Origin: a virus
IMG/VR virus record: IMGVR_UViG_3300009285_001736
Span: 1 to 44,061 of that record
DNA: 44,061 nt
Strand: one strand, 5' to 3'
Shown: positions 19,297 to 35,269 of the stretch, in pieces
How the letters are laid out: every line of letters begins with the position of its first letter
How positions within the stretch are numbered: position 1 is the first letter of the stretch
Notes under the pieces: model-generated
The model's input: the letters and a program-made list of their open reading frames with translations, nothing else
The model's database searches: none
Told to the model about the DNA's origin: nothing
Position numbers and translations under genes: made by a program

Positions 19297-20625
19297 ATGG
19301 CTTACCTTCCGTTTCCCAACCTCACGGCGCTCCAGTCGGTCCGGATGAACGCGGCCGGGACCGCGCTGGAAGGCTTCACGCCGGTGACCTCCATCATCAA
19401 CAACATCGGCGTGCCGGGCGCCGTCGGCTTCGGCGTGGGCGTGTGCCCGGCGCCGCCAGCCGGCTTCAGCCGCATGGCGGGCACCGAAGATCCCGCGAGC
19501 GACAACTACGGCACCTACCAGTACAGCGATGGCTCGGTCATGTGCTGGATCCCAGCCTTCTACTACAAGGTCGGGACCGGCGCAAACGGCCTGGCTGTGA
19601 ACATCGTGGCGATCGCGCCGCTGGCGTCGTTCGCCACTGAGGCATCGGCCAACGCGTCCGGCTACGCGCTGCACCGCGCGTTCTACGACCTGGTCGCGCA
19701 GCCCGGGGTGTTCGTCGACAAGTACCAGTGCAGCAACAACTCGGGCACGGCCTCGAGCCTACAGCTCGGCAACCCGCTGTCCTCGGCGGCCGCGCACAAC
19801 CCGTTCGCGGGTCTGACCGGCGCGCCTGCGAACGCCTACTACGGCGCCATCGCGGCGGCGAAGACGCGCGGGGCGAACTTCTTCTGCAACTCGCGGTTCA
19901 TTTACGCCGCGCTGGCGCTCCTGTCCGTCGCGCACGCCCAGGCGTCGTCGGCCACCACCTGGTGCGCCTGGTACCACGCGACGAACAACTTCCCCAAGGG
20001 GTGCAACAACAACGCCCTCGGGGACCAGCAGGACGCCGCGATCCTCTACGTAAGCGACGGCTACTCCAACGCCGCGAAGACCGGGTCCGCGAACCTCTTC
20101 GCCCGCTGCACCCATAACGGGCAGAACAGCGGGGTGGCCGACCTGAACGGGGGCATGTGGGAGATCACCCCCGGCCTAGCCACCAACGACGCCGGCACGG
20201 AGTACTTCGTCCTCAAGACCGCCACGCGCATGACGGGGGTCACGGGGGGCACGGGCGGGGCCACGGACCTGTGGGGCGCCGCGGGGCTTGCGGCCCTGTA
20301 CGATTCCCTGGGGGCGACCTGGGGCGCGGCGGTGGTGAGCGATTCCACCAAGACATACGGCAGCGCCACGCAGGTGCTCTCGGAAGCGACCAGTGGGACC
20401 GCGTGGCAAGCGGCGGGCCTGGGCATCCCCCTGGTGGGCGGCGTCGGCGGGACGAACCTGTTCGGCAATGACGGCTTCTGGGATTACCGGCCGGCCGCCA
20501 TGTGCCCGATTTCCGGCGGTGACTGGGACAACACGTCGACTGCGGGCGTCTGGGCGTTCGGCTTGGCCACCGTGCGCGGCAGCTCGAGCAACTCCGTCGG
20601 GTTCCGGGCTGCCTTGTATTTGTAA
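19297..20625 (+). CDS. DGR target protein, C-type lectin-fold tail protein
   Basis: 442 residues. The C-terminal part (about 150-442) has features of formylglycine-generating-enzyme/C-type-lectin-fold proteins used by DGRs: NGGMWEITPGL, FWDYRPAAMCPISGG, and the final GVWAFGLATVRG...SVGFRAALYL. The last 38 residues (402-439) are encoded by the variable repeat. Residues differing from the template version are Asp409, Asp411, Thr415, Gly422, Ser429, Ser431 and Ser433. No signal peptide is seen. Location at the end of the fibre genes suggests a receptor-binding tip. Confidence 0.92.
   Translation: MAYLPFPNLTALQSVRMNAAGTALEGFTPVTSIINNIGVPGAVGFGVGVCPAPPAGFSRMAGTEDPASDNYGTYQYSDGSVMCWIPAFYYKVGTGANGLAVNIVAIAPLASFATEASANASGYALHRAFYDLVAQPGVFVDKYQCSNNSGTASSLQLGNPLSSAAAHNPFAGLTGAPANAYYGAIAAAKTRGANFFCNSRFIYAALALLSVAHAQASSATTWCAWYHATNNFPKGCNNNALGDQQDAAILYVSDGYSNAAKTGSANLFARCTHNGQNSGVADLNGGMWEITPGLATNDAGTEYFVLKTATRMTGVTGGTGGATDLWGAAGLAALYDSLGATWGAAVVSDSTKTYGSATQVLSEATSGTAWQAAGLGIPLVGGVGGTNLFGNDGFWDYRPAAMCPISGGDWDNTSTAGVWAFGLATVRGSSSNSVGFRAALYL
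20500..20611 (+). repeat. DGR variable repeat (VR)
   Basis: 112 bases, aligned without gaps to the template at 21090-21201. Eight differences occur, at 20521, 20527, 20540, 20560, 20582, 20588, 20593 and 20594. All eight are adenine in the template. The final 17 bases (20595-20611) have no A and are identical, as expected for the initiation-of-mutagenic-homology region. Confidence 0.95.
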
Positions 20626-20634
20626 ACGTGTGAA

Positions 20635-20657
20635 GGGTGGCGCGACAGCGCCCACCC
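20635..20657 (+). promoter_or_regulatory. hairpin/cruciform downstream of VR
   Basis: GGGTGGCGC (20635-20643) pairs with GCG-c-CCACCC (20648-20657, one bulged C) around a GACA loop. In studied DGRs a hairpin with a GRNA tetraloop just after VR is needed for efficient retrohoming; GACA fits GRNA. It lies 10 bases after the target stop codon. Confidence 0.75.
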
Positions 20658-20689
20658 GCGTTTTCTTGTGGTGCGTGAGGGTCGACCCC

Positions 20690-21088
20690 GTGGGCCTGCA
20701 CTCTGAAGCAGAACTCAACCGGAAATTCGTGGCGATGGCGACGCTGATGAACCTGTACTTGAATCACTTCCCCAAGCACGAAAAGTACGCCCTCTGCCAG
20801 GTGATCCGGCTGGCCATGTACGGCCTATACGGGCTCATCGTCGAAACCCAGAAGCGCTACCACAAGAAGACGACGTTCGTGAGTCTCGACATCCAGCACG
20901 AGCAGCTCCGGATGTTCGTGAATCTGGCTCACAGCCTGGGGTACTTCGGCTTCAAAGATGGGAAGGGCGACACAGGAGGCGCCGTCGGGGAGCATCGGTT
21001 TCTCGCGATTAGCAAGCTCGTCGACGAGATCGGTCGGATGATCGGCGGGTGGATGGTCTTCGACCGCCACCAACGGGACGCGTCTTAA
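20690..21088 (+). CDS. avd: DGR accessory variability determinant Avd
   Basis: 132 residues. Avd forms a barrel-shaped pentamer that binds the reverse transcriptase and template RNA. The sequence is a helical bundle with basic and hydrophobic helices (MATLMNLYLNHFPKHEKYALCQVIRLAMYGLYGLIVETQKRYHKKTT split over two helices, then a four-helix pattern ending SKLVDEIGRMIGGW). The GTG at 20690 has GAGGG 8 bases upstream. It lies between VR and TR, the classic order. The family call rests on size, helicity and context. Confidence 0.88.
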   Translation: MGLHSEAELNRKFVAMATLMNLYLNHFPKHEKYALCQVIRLAMYGLYGLIVETQKRYHKKTTFVSLDIQHEQLRMFVNLAHSLGYFGFKDGKGDTGGAVGEHRFLAISKLVDEIGRMIGGWMVFDRHQRDAS

Positions 21089-21089
21089 G

Positions 21090-21201
21090 ATGTGCCCGAT
21101 TTCCGGCGGTAACTGGAACAACACGTCGAATGCGGGCGTCTGGGCGTTCAGCTTGGCCACCGTGCGCGGCAACTCGAACAACAACGTCGGGTTCCGGGCT
21201 G
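21090..21201 (+). repeat. DGR template repeat (TR)
   Basis: Contains 21 adenines among 112 bases, concentrated in AAC (Asn) codons; read in the VR frame the variable codons are mostly Asn, which lets adenine change yield many residues. It starts one base after the avd stop and matches the VR at all 91 non-adenine positions. Confidence 0.95.
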
Positions 21202-21340
21202 ACTCGGCTTCACCTCACATCGGGCAACCGAAGGGTGGAACCAAGGGAGGCGCGTTCCGGCAGCCCTGGGCTGCGAAATCGGTCGGCCACTCCGGCACCA
21301 GTAGGGCCCGTGCGGGTCTCGACCGTCACGGAGTGGGGCT
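21090..21340 (+). ncRNA. DGR template RNA with spacer up to the RT start
   Basis: The TR and the following 139 bases lie between avd and RT and contain no convincing gene. The spacer holds a 6-bp hairpin GCAGCC-ctg-GGCTGC (21260-21274). In characterised DGRs this downstream spacer is part of the template RNA used to prime cDNA synthesis. Exact RNA ends are unknown. Confidence 0.7.
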
Positions 21341-22297
21341 ATGAAGCGCGTCGGCTACCTCTTCGAGCAGGCCTTCACGCTCGAGAACCTGTACGGGGCG
21401 TACGTCGACGCCAGTCGACACAAGCAGGGCACGCGCGCCTGCTTCCAGTTCGCGCGCCGGCTGGGCTGGCATCTCGACCAGCTCCACACCGAGCTCCAGG
21501 CGGGCACCTACCGGCCCCAGCCGTACTACGCCTTCATGGTCTACGAGCCGAAGCCGCGGCGGATCTACGCCCCCGCCTTTCGCGACCTCGTCGTCCAGCA
21601 CGCCATCTATCGTGTCGTGTATCCGTTGTTCAACCGGACGTTCATTGACCAGTCGTTTGCCTGCCGGCGCGGGAAGGGCACGCATGCGGCCGCCGACTAC
21701 GCCCAGGCGGCCCTCCAGGCGTCCCCGCGCGATCGTGTCACCCTGAAACTGGACATCCGAAAGTTCTTTTCTCGAATTGACCGGGCCGTGCTCCGCGCCC
21801 GAATCGAGCGAAAGGTCAAAGACCGCCGGTTCGTCGACGTCCTGATGCAGTTCGCCGACCACGGCGAGCCCACCGGCATCCCGATCGGCAATCTCCTGTC
21901 GCAACTCTACGCCCTGATCTACCTAAATGGGCTCGACCACTGGCTCACGCGCGAACAGCAGGTCCCAGGGTACTGCCGGTACGTCGACGACTTCCTGGTG
22001 TTCGGCCTCTCGCGCGCCGAGGCCCGCGTGCTGCTCGCCCGCGTCGTCACCTACCTCGGGGTGATCGGGCTGGAGCTCTCACGCGCCACGATCGCGCCCG
22101 TGTCGCGCGGGGTGAACTTCGTCGGGTTCCGGACCTGGGCCAGTAAGCGATTCATCCGCAAACGCAGCCTGTTCGTCTTTTCCCGCGCGCTCCGTGCCCA
22201 CCGGCGCGACGCCGCGCAATCCGTCCTGGGGCATGCGCGCCGTACCCACAGCGCGCGACACCTGACCGTCGCTTTCAAGGAGGCGTTCCCATCATGA
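21341..22297 (+). CDS. DGR reverse transcriptase
   Basis: 318 residues. Catalytic aspartates are at Asp138 (LKLDIRKFF) and Asp216/Asp217 in YVDDF (214-218). The IGNLLSQ motif (182-188) is the DGR-type form of motif 4 ((I/V/L)GxxxSQ), which separates these from group II intron and retron enzymes. It makes error-prone cDNA from the template RNA, misreading adenines. It overlaps the next gene by ATGA. Confidence 0.95.
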   Translation: MKRVGYLFEQAFTLENLYGAYVDASRHKQGTRACFQFARRLGWHLDQLHTELQAGTYRPQPYYAFMVYEPKPRRIYAPAFRDLVVQHAIYRVVYPLFNRTFIDQSFACRRGKGTHAAADYAQAALQASPRDRVTLKLDIRKFFSRIDRAVLRARIERKVKDRRFVDVLMQFADHGEPTGIPIGNLLSQLYALIYLNGLDHWLTREQQVPGYCRYVDDFLVFGLSRAEARVLLARVVTYLGVIGLELSRATIAPVSRGVNFVGFRTWASKRFIRKRSLFVFSRALRAHRRDAAQSVLGHARRTHSARHLTVAFKEAFPS

Positions 22298-22692
22298 TCG
22301 TCCGGTACCTGAAGCACGTAGACGCGATTCGCACAACTGAACTGGCGCTGCCGATGGCTGGCGCCGACCGGCTCGGGACGGAGCTGGCCACTATCGACGG
22401 CCTGACGTACGTCCACATCCCGGCCGGCGCGAAACTGCCACCCCAGGCGGCGGACATCGCCCCCGAGCCCGTCGAGCTGACACCCGAGCTGGCCCGGGCC
22501 ATCAAGACGGCCAGCCCGCACGTGCGGCTGATCCACGCGCGCGTGGTCGCGAAGATCCGCGAACGCTACAGCGTGGACGACGAATTCCAGATGCTGAGGC
22601 TCCCCGACACGCCGGAAGCGCAGGCGTACCGCGCCTACACAGAGGCGTGCGTGGCGTGGGGGAAACAAGAGAAGGCGCGCCTGGGCTTATAG
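22294..22692 (+). CDS. tail fibre assembly-like protein
   Basis: 132 residues, coupled to the RT gene. The C-terminal half (ARVVAKIRERYSVDDEFQML ... AYTEACVAWGKQEKARLGL) resembles a C-terminal pattern frequent in fibre-assembly or chaperone-like phage proteins. The N-terminus is a small beta domain. Its place right behind the DGR suggests it helps fold or attach the variable protein; this is inference. Confidence 0.55.
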   Translation: MIVRYLKHVDAIRTTELALPMAGADRLGTELATIDGLTYVHIPAGAKLPPQAADIAPEPVELTPELARAIKTASPHVRLIHARVVAKIRERYSVDDEFQMLRLPDTPEAQAYRAYTEACVAWGKQEKARLGL

Positions 22693-24091: not shown

Positions 24092-24861
24092 TGACGCCTC
24101 CGACTGACGGCTTCCTCCGCGGCCTGGTCGCGGGCTTCGGCGACCCGCTGGGCACACTGCTGCCCGAGCTCGCGGCCCGCGGCGTGCAGCTCGTCCGCGA
24201 CGACCTGCAGCACATCCGGGATCGGGCGGTCTTCGACGCCCGCGTCGAGGAGTTCCTCGAGGTCGCGGCGCCCTGGCCGCTCTTCATCGTCACGGCTGGC
24301 CAGGTGGGCTGGCTCCCACGCGGCTGCTGGGCGGAGTTGCGCAACGAACCGGACTTCGACACCCCGCCCGCCTCGTACGCCAGTGAATGTCGCGCCGCGC
24401 TCCACGAGGCCGCCAGACGCGGCATGACGCTCTGGTGTGGGTCGGTCTCGAATCTCGACCAGGACTCGCTGGCGTGGCTCGAGCAGCTACTGCGAGCCTG
24501 TCCCGAGATCCCCCGCGTGAGCGTGCACCGCTACAGCCCGGACAAACACCAGACGCTCTGGAAGCCGCATGCGGGCTTCGTTGACCGCAACGAGGAGCTG
24601 CTGCGCGCCTTCGCCATCCTGCAGGGTCGGCCGTATCTCGTGACGGAGATCGGCTACCACGTCGCGAGTGGGCTCAGCGAAGCCGACCAGGCCGCCAACC
24701 TGGCGGCCGAACTGGGCTACTGGGAGCAGGCCGGCGCCCGGGGCGTGTGCATCTACCAGTTGAACGACGGAGCCTCGCCACAGCCGATCGACCGCTACGG
24801 CATGCGCCGCACTGACGGGACGTGGCGGCCGGCCATGGACATCTTCAAGGAGGTTGCCTGA
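24088..24861 (+). CDS. glycoside hydrolase-fold protein, clan GH-A-like
   Basis: 257 residues. It looks like a TIM barrel with LRNEPDF (Glu87, possible acid/base after strand 4), SVHRY (147-149 region), and VTEIGYH (Glu187, possible nucleophile after strand 7), the pattern of clan GH-A glycosidases. A sugar target cannot be named. It may degrade capsule or act on exopolysaccharide. It is coupled to the M15 gene by ATGATGA. Confidence 0.65.
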   Translation: MMTPPTDGFLRGLVAGFGDPLGTLLPELAARGVQLVRDDLQHIRDRAVFDARVEEFLEVAAPWPLFIVTAGQVGWLPRGCWAELRNEPDFDTPPASYASECRAALHEAARRGMTLWCGSVSNLDQDSLAWLEQLLRACPEIPRVSVHRYSPDKHQTLWKPHAGFVDRNEELLRAFAILQGRPYLVTEIGYHVASGLSEADQAANLAAELGYWEQAGARGVCIYQLNDGASPQPIDRYGMRRTDGTWRPAMDIFKEVA

Positions 24862-26447
24862 TGCGCCGCGCTGTTCTACTCCTCGTGCTCGCGCTCGCCG
24901 TGGCCGGGTGCCCCCGCCCCCTGCCGCCACCGAAGCCACCGACCCCCCCGACCCCTGGGCCGGTCATGCACCACGACTTCACGTGGGAGGTCGTGGCCGA
25001 GAACGGCGGCCCTGTCGTGGACGCTCTCATCACGGTCGACCCCGATCCTGGTAACGGAGGCACGCGCCTGACCGACGGCAACGGACGCGCTCACTTCGGC
25101 GCGCCGTTCAACATCTACCTCGTCCGTGTCACCAAGACGGGGTTTGTGTCCTGGGAGGACACCGTGGCGGTGGGCGGCCCCATGCACACCGTGGTGACTT
25201 TGCGAGGCGACCTGCCGCCGCCGCCAGACCCACCACACGGGCGCGTGCGCCTCCATGAGCGGGTGTTCACGGACGACGACGGCCCGCGTCCGATGGTGGG
25301 GGCATCCCTGTTCTGGCTGGCCTGGGGGTACAAGCACGACCGGGATCGACTTGCACAGAACTTGCAGTGGCTGGCCGAGCGGGACGTGGACTTCGTGCGG
25401 GCGTTCGCGGAGGTCTGTGCTCGGCACGGATACCAGGTGTGGGCTGACCGGGAGGTGGACCCGGAGTGGCCCGACTACGCCGACGTCATCCAGGGGAGCA
25501 CGCGGCTGGCGATGGCGCACGGCCTCCGTGTGGAGTGGACCCTGTTCGCGGGCGGCTGCTACGACACGCCGCACGAGTGGCTGGCGGCCGGCGGTCGCAT
25601 GATCGACGCGCTCCGCCCCGTCCTTGACGGCGTGCAGTTCGTCGAGGTGACCAACGAGGAGCAGTTGCCCGACCGGTCCGTCGTGCGCGAGCTGGCCCGT
25701 CGCGTCCGAGACCGCCTCGGTATCGAGGTGGCCCTCACCTCGCCCTATAGCGACTACAGCGCGTGGTACGACGGCAGTGCCGCGACCCTTGGGACCTATC
25801 ACCCGGACCGCGCCTACGGCGACTATGGGTGGCGGTTTGCTCGCCAGATGTGGGGCTACCCGGACGAGCTCGGCTCCGGCCTGCCGCGGCCGTGCGTGAA
25901 CAACGAGCCCATCGGGATCGACTCGTCCGTGCGCCCAGAGTCCGACCCGGTCAAGCTGGCCTCCGACGCCTTGGTGACGTGGGTCAGTGGGTGCGCGGCC
26001 TACGTCTGGCACTCCGGCGCCGGCATCTTTGGGCGGTTCCAGGACGACGGTCACGGGCGCGTGGTCCAGGCGAACGTCTACGACCAGCCGGAGGCGGATG
26101 CGGGGCTGCGCCTCATTGACCGCGTGCGCGACGAGCTGCCGAATGACTTGCCGAACTGGAGCCGGGCCAACAACGGGTGGACGGCGCCGAACCCGGTGCC
26201 GCCGTTCCGGTTCACCCAGGACGACGTGGGCGAAGGCGCCACGGCCGCCCGCGGGGTTGTTCGCTCGTATAGCGCACTGCGCGGCGATCGGTTCTGCACG
26301 GTCGTCCTTGGCGCGCGCGGCGCCCTGACAACCACGCCGACACGGCCGGTGACGGCGACCATCTGGAACTTCAGTGATTGGGTGGCGAGGCCGTGGACGG
26401 GTCGCGTCGACGGCCCAGTGACAACCTATCTCGTGATCGGGAGGTGA
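24861..26447 (+). CDS. lipoprotein with glycosidase-like barrel
   Basis: 528 residues. A signal sequence ends in the lipobox VAGC (Cys17), then a Pro-rich linker (PLPPPKPPTPPTPGP), a small beta domain (VVDALITVDPD...KTGFVSWEDTV), and a barrel-like region with VEVTNEEQ (Glu266) and CVNNEPIGI (Glu349) as possible catalytic pair. AAGGAGG lies 7 bases from ATG 24861. A lipoprotein in a lysis/late region is unusual; it may decorate the host envelope rather than the virion. Confidence 0.65.
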   Translation: MRRAVLLLVLALAVAGCPRPLPPPKPPTPPTPGPVMHHDFTWEVVAENGGPVVDALITVDPDPGNGGTRLTDGNGRAHFGAPFNIYLVRVTKTGFVSWEDTVAVGGPMHTVVTLRGDLPPPPDPPHGRVRLHERVFTDDDGPRPMVGASLFWLAWGYKHDRDRLAQNLQWLAERDVDFVRAFAEVCARHGYQVWADREVDPEWPDYADVIQGSTRLAMAHGLRVEWTLFAGGCYDTPHEWLAAGGRMIDALRPVLDGVQFVEVTNEEQLPDRSVVRELARRVRDRLGIEVALTSPYSDYSAWYDGSAATLGTYHPDRAYGDYGWRFARQMWGYPDELGSGLPRPCVNNEPIGIDSSVRPESDPVKLASDALVTWVSGCAAYVWHSGAGIFGRFQDDGHGRVVQANVYDQPEADAGLRLIDRVRDELPNDLPNWSRANNGWTAPNPVPPFRFTQDDVGEGATAARGVVRSYSALRGDRFCTVVLGARGALTTTPTRPVTATIWNFSDWVARPWTGRVDGPVTTYLVIGR

Positions 26448-33221: not shown

Positions 33222-33827
33222 ATGACAGACATTCAGACGGTGCAGTTGAGGTTGACCGGGCGGCCGGGGTCGCCACTGGTGATCCATGCGTTCGCCGAGA
33301 AGGCGAAGCAGGAGATCCGCGACAAGCAGCAGAAGAAAGCCAAGAAAGCCAAAGCTGAGCGTCAGCCCGCGGCGGAATGCGAAGCCGCCAAGTATTTCGA
33401 TCACGCCGGCCGCGAGTGTGCGCCGATCACCGCCATCAAGAAGGCGATAGTGAGCGCCGGCACGGCCATGGACAACCTCACGAAGGTCGCCATCCGCCAG
33501 GCGGTGTTCGTGGCACCGACGCTGGCTCCGGCCTCCATGCTCGTCCCGATTCAGCGTCCGGACGGGTCGTTCGCTGTCGGGGTGATCCGCGAGGACGCCG
33601 TGACCATCGGCATCAACACGCGCGGGCTGTCCTACCGGCCTGAGTACTCCGAGTGGCAGCTTCGCGTCACCGTCGAGTTCAACGCCCGCCTCATTTCACG
33701 TGATCAGCTCATCGCGCTGGCCGAGCAGGCCGGCTGGGGCGTCGGCATCTGCGAGGGGCGGCCCGAGAAGACGTCGGCGCTCGGATGGGGCCGGTTTTCC
33801 GTGGGAGTTGAGGAGATCCCTGCATGA
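33222..33827 (+). CDS. conserved early phage protein, unknown function
   Basis: 201 residues; GGAGG precedes the ATG. It has a Lys-rich helix (KAKQEIRDKQQKKAKKAKAE), then KYFDHAGRECAPITAIKKAIVSAG, TAMDNLTKVAIRQAVFV, RPDGSFAVGVIREDAVTIG and WGVGICEGRPEKTSALGWGRF. A pattern of this kind occurs in other phage early regions; no function is established. It overlaps the ParB-like gene by ATGA. Confidence 0.65.
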   Translation: MTDIQTVQLRLTGRPGSPLVIHAFAEKAKQEIRDKQQKKAKKAKAERQPAAECEAAKYFDHAGRECAPITAIKKAIVSAGTAMDNLTKVAIRQAVFVAPTLAPASMLVPIQRPDGSFAVGVIREDAVTIGINTRGLSYRPEYSEWQLRVTVEFNARLISRDQLIALAEQAGWGVGICEGRPEKTSALGWGRFSVGVEEIPA

Positions 33828-35269
33828 GTCTCGATCGCACAGCCCAGCTCCGCGTCGCCACGCTCTTCGTCGGCGACAGCAACCCGCGTCGGTCGCAGAA
33901 CGCGACCAGCCTGGGCGAGCTCGTCGCCAGCATCCGCCAGCAGGGCGTTCTCGTGCCCCTGCTGGTTCGCCCTCACGACACCGACGACACGCCGCGCTAC
34001 GAGGTCATTGCCGGCTCGCGGCGGCTCGCGGCTGCCCGGGAGATCGGGCTCGGGGAGCTGCCGTGCATCGTGCGCACGTGCGACGACGCCGAAGCGCGCA
34101 CCCTCGCCCTGGTCGACAACCTGCAGCGCGAAGACGTCCATCCGCTCGAGGAGGCCGACGGCTACGCCGACCTGATGGCGGCCGACCCGCGCTGTACCCT
34201 CGAGGTCCTCGCGGCTCAGGTGGGCCGGAGCGTCACGTACCTCCGGCGCAGGCTGCGCCTGCGCGCGCTGATCCCGCCGGTCCGCGAGGCGTGCGCTTCG
34301 GGCGAGATCACAATCGCGCACGCCGAGGAACTCGCCGGCCTCCACCCGGACGTGCAGCACCGGGCCCTCGAGGAGGGCTGTTTCGATGACGTGCTCGACT
34401 GGGACGCCGACGATGACGAACTCGGCGCCGAGGCGCGCAAGCGCGAGCTCCAGCCGGTGCGTGAGCTGAAGCACTGGATCCGCCGGCACACCAAGATCGA
34501 TATTGCCCAGCCCGAGACCATCGAGTTGTTCCCACAACTCGCCGACCTGCAGGCCGAGCCGGAGGTCCTGCTCGAGATCAGCACCGCCATGTGTCGCGCC
34601 TCGGACGTGCCGGCTGGCGTGCTCCCGCCGACGAAGTGGCGCCCGGCTGAGGCGAAGCGCGACCAGTGTGACCACCGGCAGCGCGCCGTCGTGGTGCATG
34701 CCGGCGGCTACCGGAATGACGGGCTCGGTGAGATCCGGTGGGTGTGCGCGCACCGGAAGTGCGAGACGCACTTCCCGCCGAAGCCCAAGGCCGGCGCCGC
34801 GGCCACCAAGCAGCGCCTGTCCTGGGAAGAGCAGGCGGCCCAGCGGAAGCAGGCGCAGGCCGTCTACGACCGGATCCACGCCGCGGCCATCGATGCCTTG
34901 GCGGCGAAGACGAAGAACGTGAGGCTCGACGACACGATGCTGGTCGACCTCCTGGCAGAGCGGGTTTCCAGGGATGAGCTGTCCAGGATCGCCAGGTTGG
35001 TCGGCGGGGCCATCACCCTGAAGACGTTCGGCCAGGCCCTGGTGCTGATAGACGCCCTCGCGTTCGCCTGGCCTGGCGCGAAGCCAGACCTTGCCAAGCT
35101 CTGCAAGGCGCACGGCGTCGACCTGAAGAAGGTCGAGAAGGGACTTCCCGACCCCATGGCGCCGGCTAAGGCTGCCTCGGCAAACACGAAGAGCAAGAAG
35201 GTCGGCGGCAAGACGCCGGCCGAGAAGTCGATCGCACGACGGTCGAAGTCGCGGAGGCGTGCGGCATGA
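33824..35269 (+). CDS. ParB/Spo0J-like protein
   Basis: 481 residues. The N-terminal ParB domain is clear: PLLVRP, YEVIAGSRRLAAAREIG and LVDNLQREDVHPLEEADGYA; a helix-turn-helix follows (TLEVLAAQVGRSVTYLRRRL). The C-terminal half has a Cys/His zinc-like patch (CDHRQRAVVVH, CAHRKCETHF) and basic helices. No ParA is near, so a regulatory or DNA-processing role is more likely than partition. Coupled ATGA at both ends. Confidence 0.88.
   Translation: MSLDRTAQLRVATLFVGDSNPRRSQNATSLGELVASIRQQGVLVPLLVRPHDTDDTPRYEVIAGSRRLAAAREIGLGELPCIVRTCDDAEARTLALVDNLQREDVHPLEEADGYADLMAADPRCTLEVLAAQVGRSVTYLRRRLRLRALIPPVREACASGEITIAHAEELAGLHPDVQHRALEEGCFDDVLDWDADDDELGAEARKRELQPVRELKHWIRRHTKIDIAQPETIELFPQLADLQAEPEVLLEISTAMCRASDVPAGVLPPTKWRPAEAKRDQCDHRQRAVVVHAGGYRNDGLGEIRWVCAHRKCETHFPPKPKAGAAATKQRLSWEEQAAQRKQAQAVYDRIHAAAIDALAAKTKNVRLDDTMLVDLLAERVSRDELSRIARLVGGAITLKTFGQALVLIDALAFAWPGAKPDLAKLCKAHGVDLKKVEKGLPDPMAPAKAASANTKSKKVGGKTPAEKSIARRSKSRRRAA

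What the first reader, a model, noticed from the sequence alone, without database searches (positions are those of the whole stretch)
20500..22297. Complete, recently active diversity-generating retroelement in a phage tail locus
VR (20500-20611) and TR (21090-21201) align over 112 bases with 8 differences, every one at a TR adenine (8 of 21 adenines changed, 0 of 91 other positions). avd and an RT with YVDDF and IGNLLSQ complete the set. Adenine-only change is the accepted mark of DGR mutagenesis. The target protein and its phage context are not something I can name from memory, so the receptor being tracked is unknown.
Basis: partly seen in the sequence, partly recalled or inferred. Interest (0 to 1): 0.93.

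Follow-up and report, generated by a model that had tools for sequence, protein, structure and literature searches.

The report
Phage tail-adhesin mutating retroelement (DGR)
This uncultured phage carries a complete, textbook mutation machine, a diversity-generating retroelement like that of Bordetella phage BPP-1, that rewrites the tip of its probable tail adhesin; it is a clear new example of a well-known system rather than a new kind of system.

Summary
VR (20500-20611) and TR (21090-21201) differ at 8 of 112 positions, all TR adenines (chance about 4e-7). Order is target, avd, TR, RT, as in BPP-1, with similar avd-TR and TR-RT spacings. Family models confirm Avd and RT; a tree puts the RT among DGR RTs, away from group II introns. 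Both target-site elements are present: a fixed IMH/IMH* difference (VR GCCT, TR GACT, 70 of 71 pairs) and a GRNA-loop hairpin (20635-20657; such a loop in 52 of 52 sites examined). Variation data come from relatives: 42 contig pairs with identical flanks (1.6-2.2 kb) show 519 VR differences, 506 at TR adenines. No second copy of this phage was found, so its own recent activity is inferred. Side finding: in 10 relatives the avd-TR-RT slot is empty, and in two TR and RT are replaced by an HNH endonuclease-like gene; the target tree needs at least eight gains or losses. Verdict: canonical new member of a known kind.

The parts
19297..20625 (+). target gene: 442-aa predicted C-type-lectin-fold variable protein, probable tail adhesin
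   Evidence: intact frame; predicted fold closest to TaqVP, then Mtd and TvpA
20500..20614 (+). variable repeat (VR); mutagenised part 20500-20611, fixed IMH marker at 20612
20590..20614 (+). approximate IMH-like 3' end of VR (...GTCGGGTTCCGGGCTGCCT); 5' limit not defined
   Evidence: VR GCCT versus TR GACT fixed in 70 of 71 distinct pairs; role by analogy with BPP-1
20635..20657 (+). hairpin GGGTGGCGC-GACA-GCGCCCACCC (one bulge) with a GRNA loop, downstream of VR
   Evidence: comparable GC-closed GRNA loop in 52 of 52 distinct sites versus 3.4% of random segments; BPP-1 requirement in PMC3240598
20690..21088 (+). avd, accessory variability determinant (132 aa, GTG start)
   Evidence: PF22296 E 6e-17 above cut-off; phrog_3206
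21090..21204 (+). template repeat (TR), starting 1 nt after the avd stop; IMH* marker GACT at its end
21205..21340 (+). 136-nt spacer between TR and RT, the counterpart of BPP-1's 144-nt spacer
   Evidence: any role in priming is by analogy
21341..22297 (+). DGR reverse transcriptase (318 aa)
   Evidence: PF00078, phrog_1423, best solved match BPP-1 bRT; tree
22294..22692 (+). small conserved gene that marks the downstream end of the cassette slot; kept in relatives that lack the DGR
   Evidence: no family match

Best explanation
A BPP-1-type diversity-generating retroelement of a tailed phage. The TR region is transcribed; the RT with Avd copies it into cDNA with errors at adenines; the cDNA replaces the VR at the 3' end of the adhesin gene, guided by the IMH-like end and the downstream GRNA hairpin, while the differing IMH* keeps the TR unchanged. 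Each event re-randomises mostly AAC codons in the last 35 or so residues of a C-type-lectin domain, changing what the tail tip binds. Shown here: the repeats, the adenine-only differences, the gene families, the predicted target fold, the cis elements, and adenine-confined variation in relatives. Inferred from BPP-1: transcription, mutagenic copying, retrohoming and altered binding in this phage.
For: 8/21 A versus 0/91 non-A changes. avd and RT families. RT on the DGR side of a 100/100 split from group II introns. 71 distinct family VR/TR pairs: 1028 of 1883 adenines changed versus 44 of 6042 other bases. 42 contig pairs with identical flanks but 519 VR differences, 506 at TR adenines. Target predicted as CLec fold next to TaqVP, Mtd, TvpA. 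IMH/IMH* and GRNA hairpin present, as required in BPP-1 (PMC3240598). avd-TR and TR-RT spacings match BPP-1.
Against: No second record of this phage was found, so activity of this very element is not seen directly. 13 of 519 pairwise VR differences and 44 of 6042 template positions in relatives are non-adenine; point mutation, change after homing or assembly error could explain them. The target's place in the virion is not shown. The record is linear and may be incomplete.
Confidence: 0.96

Rival explanations
1. A complete-looking DGR that is no longer active in this phage: the VR was diversified in the past and is now fixed, and the cassette persists by inertia.
For: No population data exist for this phage; related lineages have repeatedly lost the cassette.
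Against: All parts and cis elements are intact; no non-adenine difference has built up between VR and TR over 91 positions; close relatives are variable in nature.
Confidence: 0.1
2. An ordinary gene-fragment duplication next to a non-DGR reverse transcriptase (group II intron, retron or defence RT), with differences by chance.
For: RTs of these classes share the RVT_1 domain and give weak hits here.
Against: Adenine bias p 4e-7 repeated across 71 family pairs; avd present; tree position; scores far below the cut-offs of the group II, retron and DRT models.
Confidence: 0.005
3. A DGR whose target is not a receptor-binding tail protein but another phage-encoded surface or secreted protein of the same fold, since CLec/FGE folds serve many roles.
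For: The fold is shared with formylglycine-generating enzymes and other proteins, and virion location is not shown.
Against: The gene lies behind the tape-measure and other tail-region genes; the nearest predicted viral folds include many named tail collar fibre proteins; phage DGR targets are mostly tail proteins (PMC8144416).
Confidence: 0.08

Closest known systems
Bordetella phage BPP-1 DGR (mtd-avd-TR-brt)
   Same: Gene order, VR at the 3' end of the target, TR directly after avd (0 versus 1 nt), TR-RT spacer 144 versus 136 nt, GRNA hairpin after VR, adenine-specific changes.
   Different: RT only 40% identical; predicted target fold is far nearer to TaqVP than to Mtd; the hairpin stem has one bulge.
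Pseudomonas phage Bise DGR
   Same: Closest cultured phage by RT (56% identity); same order; VR/TR with 9 of 25 adenines changed and no other change; its record names only hypothetical, four-helix bundle and RT proteins.
   Different: A phage with contractile-tail genes; target about 30% identical over its C-terminal half; VR-TR offset 714 versus 590.
Thermus aquaticus DGR variable protein TaqVP (5VF4, PMC6328139)
   Same: Closest solved fold of the target over residues 57-442 (Z 28.5, rmsd 3.0, 296 aligned).
   Different: 21% identity; the phage target has an N-terminal stretch of low model confidence.
Environmental DGR catalogue of Roux et al. 2021 (PMC8144416)
   Same: Virus-encoded DGRs with C-Lec targets, broadly active in nature, are described there in bulk.
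   Different: This element was not assigned to one of that study's six clades here.

Membership tests
Diversity-generating retroelement (DGR) | RT of the DGR clade, separate from group II introns and retrons | tested here: met
   retrons were not in the tree, only compared through family and structure libraries
Diversity-generating retroelement (DGR) | TR and VR near-repeats that differ at TR adenines | tested here: met
   8/21 A, 0/91 non-A
Diversity-generating retroelement (DGR) | VR at the 3' end of a target gene with a CLec-fold product | tested here: met
   Predicted model and its solved relatives, (a prediction, not an experimental structure)
Diversity-generating retroelement (DGR) | Accessory gene (avd) | tested here: met
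   PF22296 above cut-off, phrog_3206; NF033474 hit lies below its cut-off
BPP-1-type phage DGR | IMH at the VR 3' end and a differing IMH* at the TR | tested here: met
   GCCT versus GACT in 70 of 71 distinct pairs; function not tested
BPP-1-type phage DGR | Hairpin or cruciform with a 4-nt GRNA loop downstream of VR | tested here: met
   20635-20657, GACA loop; GC-closed GRNA loop in 52 of 52 sites examined
BPP-1-type phage DGR | VR variation in populations confined to TR-adenine sites | tested here: inconclusive
   Met in relatives (506 of 519 differences); no data for this phage
BPP-1-type phage DGR | RT-dependent mutagenic retrohoming and receptor switching | not testable with these tools
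   Needs an experiment

The most novel reading that the evidence does not exclude
In this phage-adhesin lineage the avd-TR-RT cassette behaves as a removable module: it is repeatedly lost from one fixed slot, by deletion or by replacement of TR and RT with an HNH endonuclease gene, leaving an intact adhesin frozen at one specificity, so that phages move between diversifying and fixed-receptor states.
Probability: 0.6. Interest if true: 0.5.

Novelty: new member of a known kind. Interest (0 to 1): 0.33.

Why it matters
It adds a complete, well-delimited BPP-1-type DGR with a TaqVP-like adhesin, and places it in a family large enough to see DGR action directly in nature: phages with identical flanking DNA that differ only in the adhesin tip. 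The empty and HNH-occupied slots give a natural comparison of diversifying and fixed adhesins, which could be used to ask when hypermutation pays.

Tried and rejected
An exact-pattern scan for other records with the same TR/VR 5' half found none. Pfam and NCBIfam gave no domain for the target; fold comparison did. DNA folding of the 91-nt stretch after VR is not more stable than shuffles (z -0.25), so the hairpin rests on conservation of the GRNA loop, not on energy. The first hairpin finder missed stems with internal loops; the motif count replaced it. L108's 321-nt repeat is unrelated and was dropped; counts include duplicate contigs, and the dereplicated figures are. Retron RTs were not put in the tree because no retron sequence was fetched. 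The HNH assignment for L087 is not seen in Pfam but is strong in PHROGs; L097's frame was not scanned in PHROGs and is judged by likeness and place only.

Full report
Observation. VR 20500-20611 and TR 21090-21201 match over 112 nt except at 8 positions, each a TR adenine (5 A to G, 2 A to C, 1 A to T); none of the 91 other positions differs. If 8 differences fell at random, the chance that all hit the 21 adenines is 4.3e-7. All eight lie at first or second codon positions, and seven codons change residue: N409D, N411D, N415T, S422G, N429S, N431S, N433S (TR to VR). The ungapped match continues to 115 nt with a ninth A-site difference. That ninth site is GACT in TR and GCCT in VR in 70 of 71 distinct family pairs, so it is a fixed marker that sets IMH* apart from IMH and not a mutation event.

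Genes. The target is an intact 442-aa frame (19297-20625). avd is 20690-21088 (GTG start): PF22296 bAvd, E 6e-17, above cut-off, and phrog_3206 'Avd protein of DGR'. The RT is 21341-22297: PF00078, phrog_1423; among solved structures its best match is the BPP-1 bRT (8ub7, E 1.6e-53, 185 bits), well ahead of a group II intron RT (GsI-IIC, 85 bits) (that 8ub7 is the BPP-1 enzyme is my own knowledge, the table says only 'Reverse transcriptase'). NCBIfam's group II intron model scores 116 bits against a cut-off of 300. In a tree of 43 RTs, three group II intron RTs split off with 100/100 support and the window RT sits among phage DGR RTs with L003 as sister (99/97). BPP-1 is on a long branch and its exact place is unsettled. 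Retrons were not included.

Context. Upstream lie terminase, portal, head protease and major head, decoration, neck and tape-measure genes, then unassigned tail-region genes and the target. Downstream are a possible Rz-like spanin (24822-26447, weak) and a ParB-like protein (33824-35269). The record is a 44,061-base viral contig. RT relatives occur in MAGs of Rhodocyclales, Nitrosomonadales, Methylococcales, Mariprofundaceae and others, so a Pseudomonadota host is likely but not shown.

Target fold. No Pfam or NCBIfam domain was found. An alignment of 44 relatives gave a model with mean pLDDT 81.8 and pTM 0.86; residues 1-31 and two loops are of low confidence. A profile of the family matches one solved protein only, the Thermus aquaticus DGR variable protein (5vf4, profile positions 392-442, E 4e-6). 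Foldseek ranks the same protein first (E 3e-13). The structural aligner gives it Z 28.5 over 296 residues, followed by Mtd (about 12), TvpA (11.4) and formylglycine-generating enzymes (about 10). The target is therefore predicted to be a C-type-lectin-fold DGR variable protein. Many of its best predicted viral matches are named tail collar fibre proteins, consistent with a tail adhesin; its place in the virion is inferred.

Target-site elements. In BPP-1 a hairpin or cruciform near the VR end is needed for efficient homing; in phage DGRs it has a 7-10 bp GC-rich stem and a GRNA loop, 4-34 bp after VR (PMC3240598). The window has GGGTGGCGC-GACA-GCGCCCACCC, with one bulge, at 20635-20657. A GC-closed GRNA tetraloop lies in the 60 nt after VR in 52 of 52 distinct sites, against 3.4% of random segments of the same loci. 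The fold energy of the region is not unusual. Spacings are close to BPP-1: avd-TR 1 versus 0 nt, TR-RT 136 versus 144 nt; target-avd differs more, 64 versus 30 nt.

Activity in relatives. Eighty IMG/VR loci with RT relatives and 45 with target relatives were collected. Over 71 distinct VR/TR pairs, 1028 of 1883 adenines differ versus 44 of 6042 other bases; the replacements are G 579, C 256, T 193. The best test is between near-identical contigs: 42 pairs have no difference in the 1.6-2.2 kb compared around VR, yet their VRs differ at 519 positions in all, 506 of them at TR adenines. These pairs are not independent, since they come from a few clusters of contigs. For the window phage itself no second record was found, so its activity is inferred from intact parts and zero non-adenine divergence.

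Cassette loss. In contigs that hold both the target and a homologue of the gene at 22294-22692, the gap between them is 1633-1733 bp when avd, TR and RT are present. It is 28-172 bp in ten contigs without them (L086, L088, L089, L095, L096, L107, L111, L115, L123, L124; L095 and L096 are near-identical), and 1124 and 889 bp in L087 and L097. No RT was found in ten such records, including ones of 64, 65 and 99 kb. L086 keeps a weak match to the first 15 codons of avd, and L088 a weak match to RT residues 290-308, which points to deletion. In L087 avd is whole and in L097 truncated, and each is followed by a minus-strand frame in place of TR and RT; that of L087 is an HNH endonuclease (phrog_374, E 1e-65). 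On a tree of the targets without the VR, RT presence changes at least eight times even when only well-supported branches are counted. Loss is favoured over gain by the stubs and truncations, but ancestral absence cannot be excluded for the clean empty sites. One literature search with a few terms found no description of this, which is a limited check.

Conclusion. The finding is right and complete; it is a canonical phage DGR and therefore a new member of a well-known kind. The more interesting aspect is the repeated emptying of the cassette slot in its relatives.

Noticed in passing
L086, L088, L089, L095, L096, L107, L111, L115, L123, L124 (between target and downstream gene): The avd-TR-RT slot is empty (28-172 bp instead of about 1650 bp), with weak avd or RT stubs in L086 and L088; the target tree needs at least 8 changes of RT presence.
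   Followed up: partly
L087:4560-5220 and L097:5450-6075, minus strand: A frame of HNH endonuclease type replaces TR and RT; avd is whole in L087 and cut short in L097. L087's frame matches phrog_374 (E 1e-65); L097's is judged by likeness and place only.
   Followed up: partly
window 22294-22692: Conserved small gene of unknown function right after the cassette, overlapping the RT stop by 4 nt and kept also in relatives that lack the DGR, so it probably belongs with the adhesin rather than with the retroelement.
   Followed up: partly
window 21090-21344: The TR is part of an 84-aa open frame that starts with ATG and ends at the RT start; probably a by-product of TR mirroring the coding VR.
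   Followed up: no
L083:6042-9032 (Pseudomonas phage Bise, OR683401.1): A cultured phage with an evident DGR (9 of 25 adenines changed, no other change) whose record names only hypothetical, four-helix bundle and RT proteins.
   Followed up: partly
Campylobacter phages such as CP220 (BFVD D5GV96; hits H23-H38): A hypothetical protein is the closest predicted viral fold to the target (E 1e-21) and aligns in sequence to residues of about 60-293, outside the VR. Whether these phages carry a DGR was not checked.
   Followed up: no
window 33824-35269: ParB-like partition protein, which may hint at a plasmid-like prophage state.
   Followed up: no
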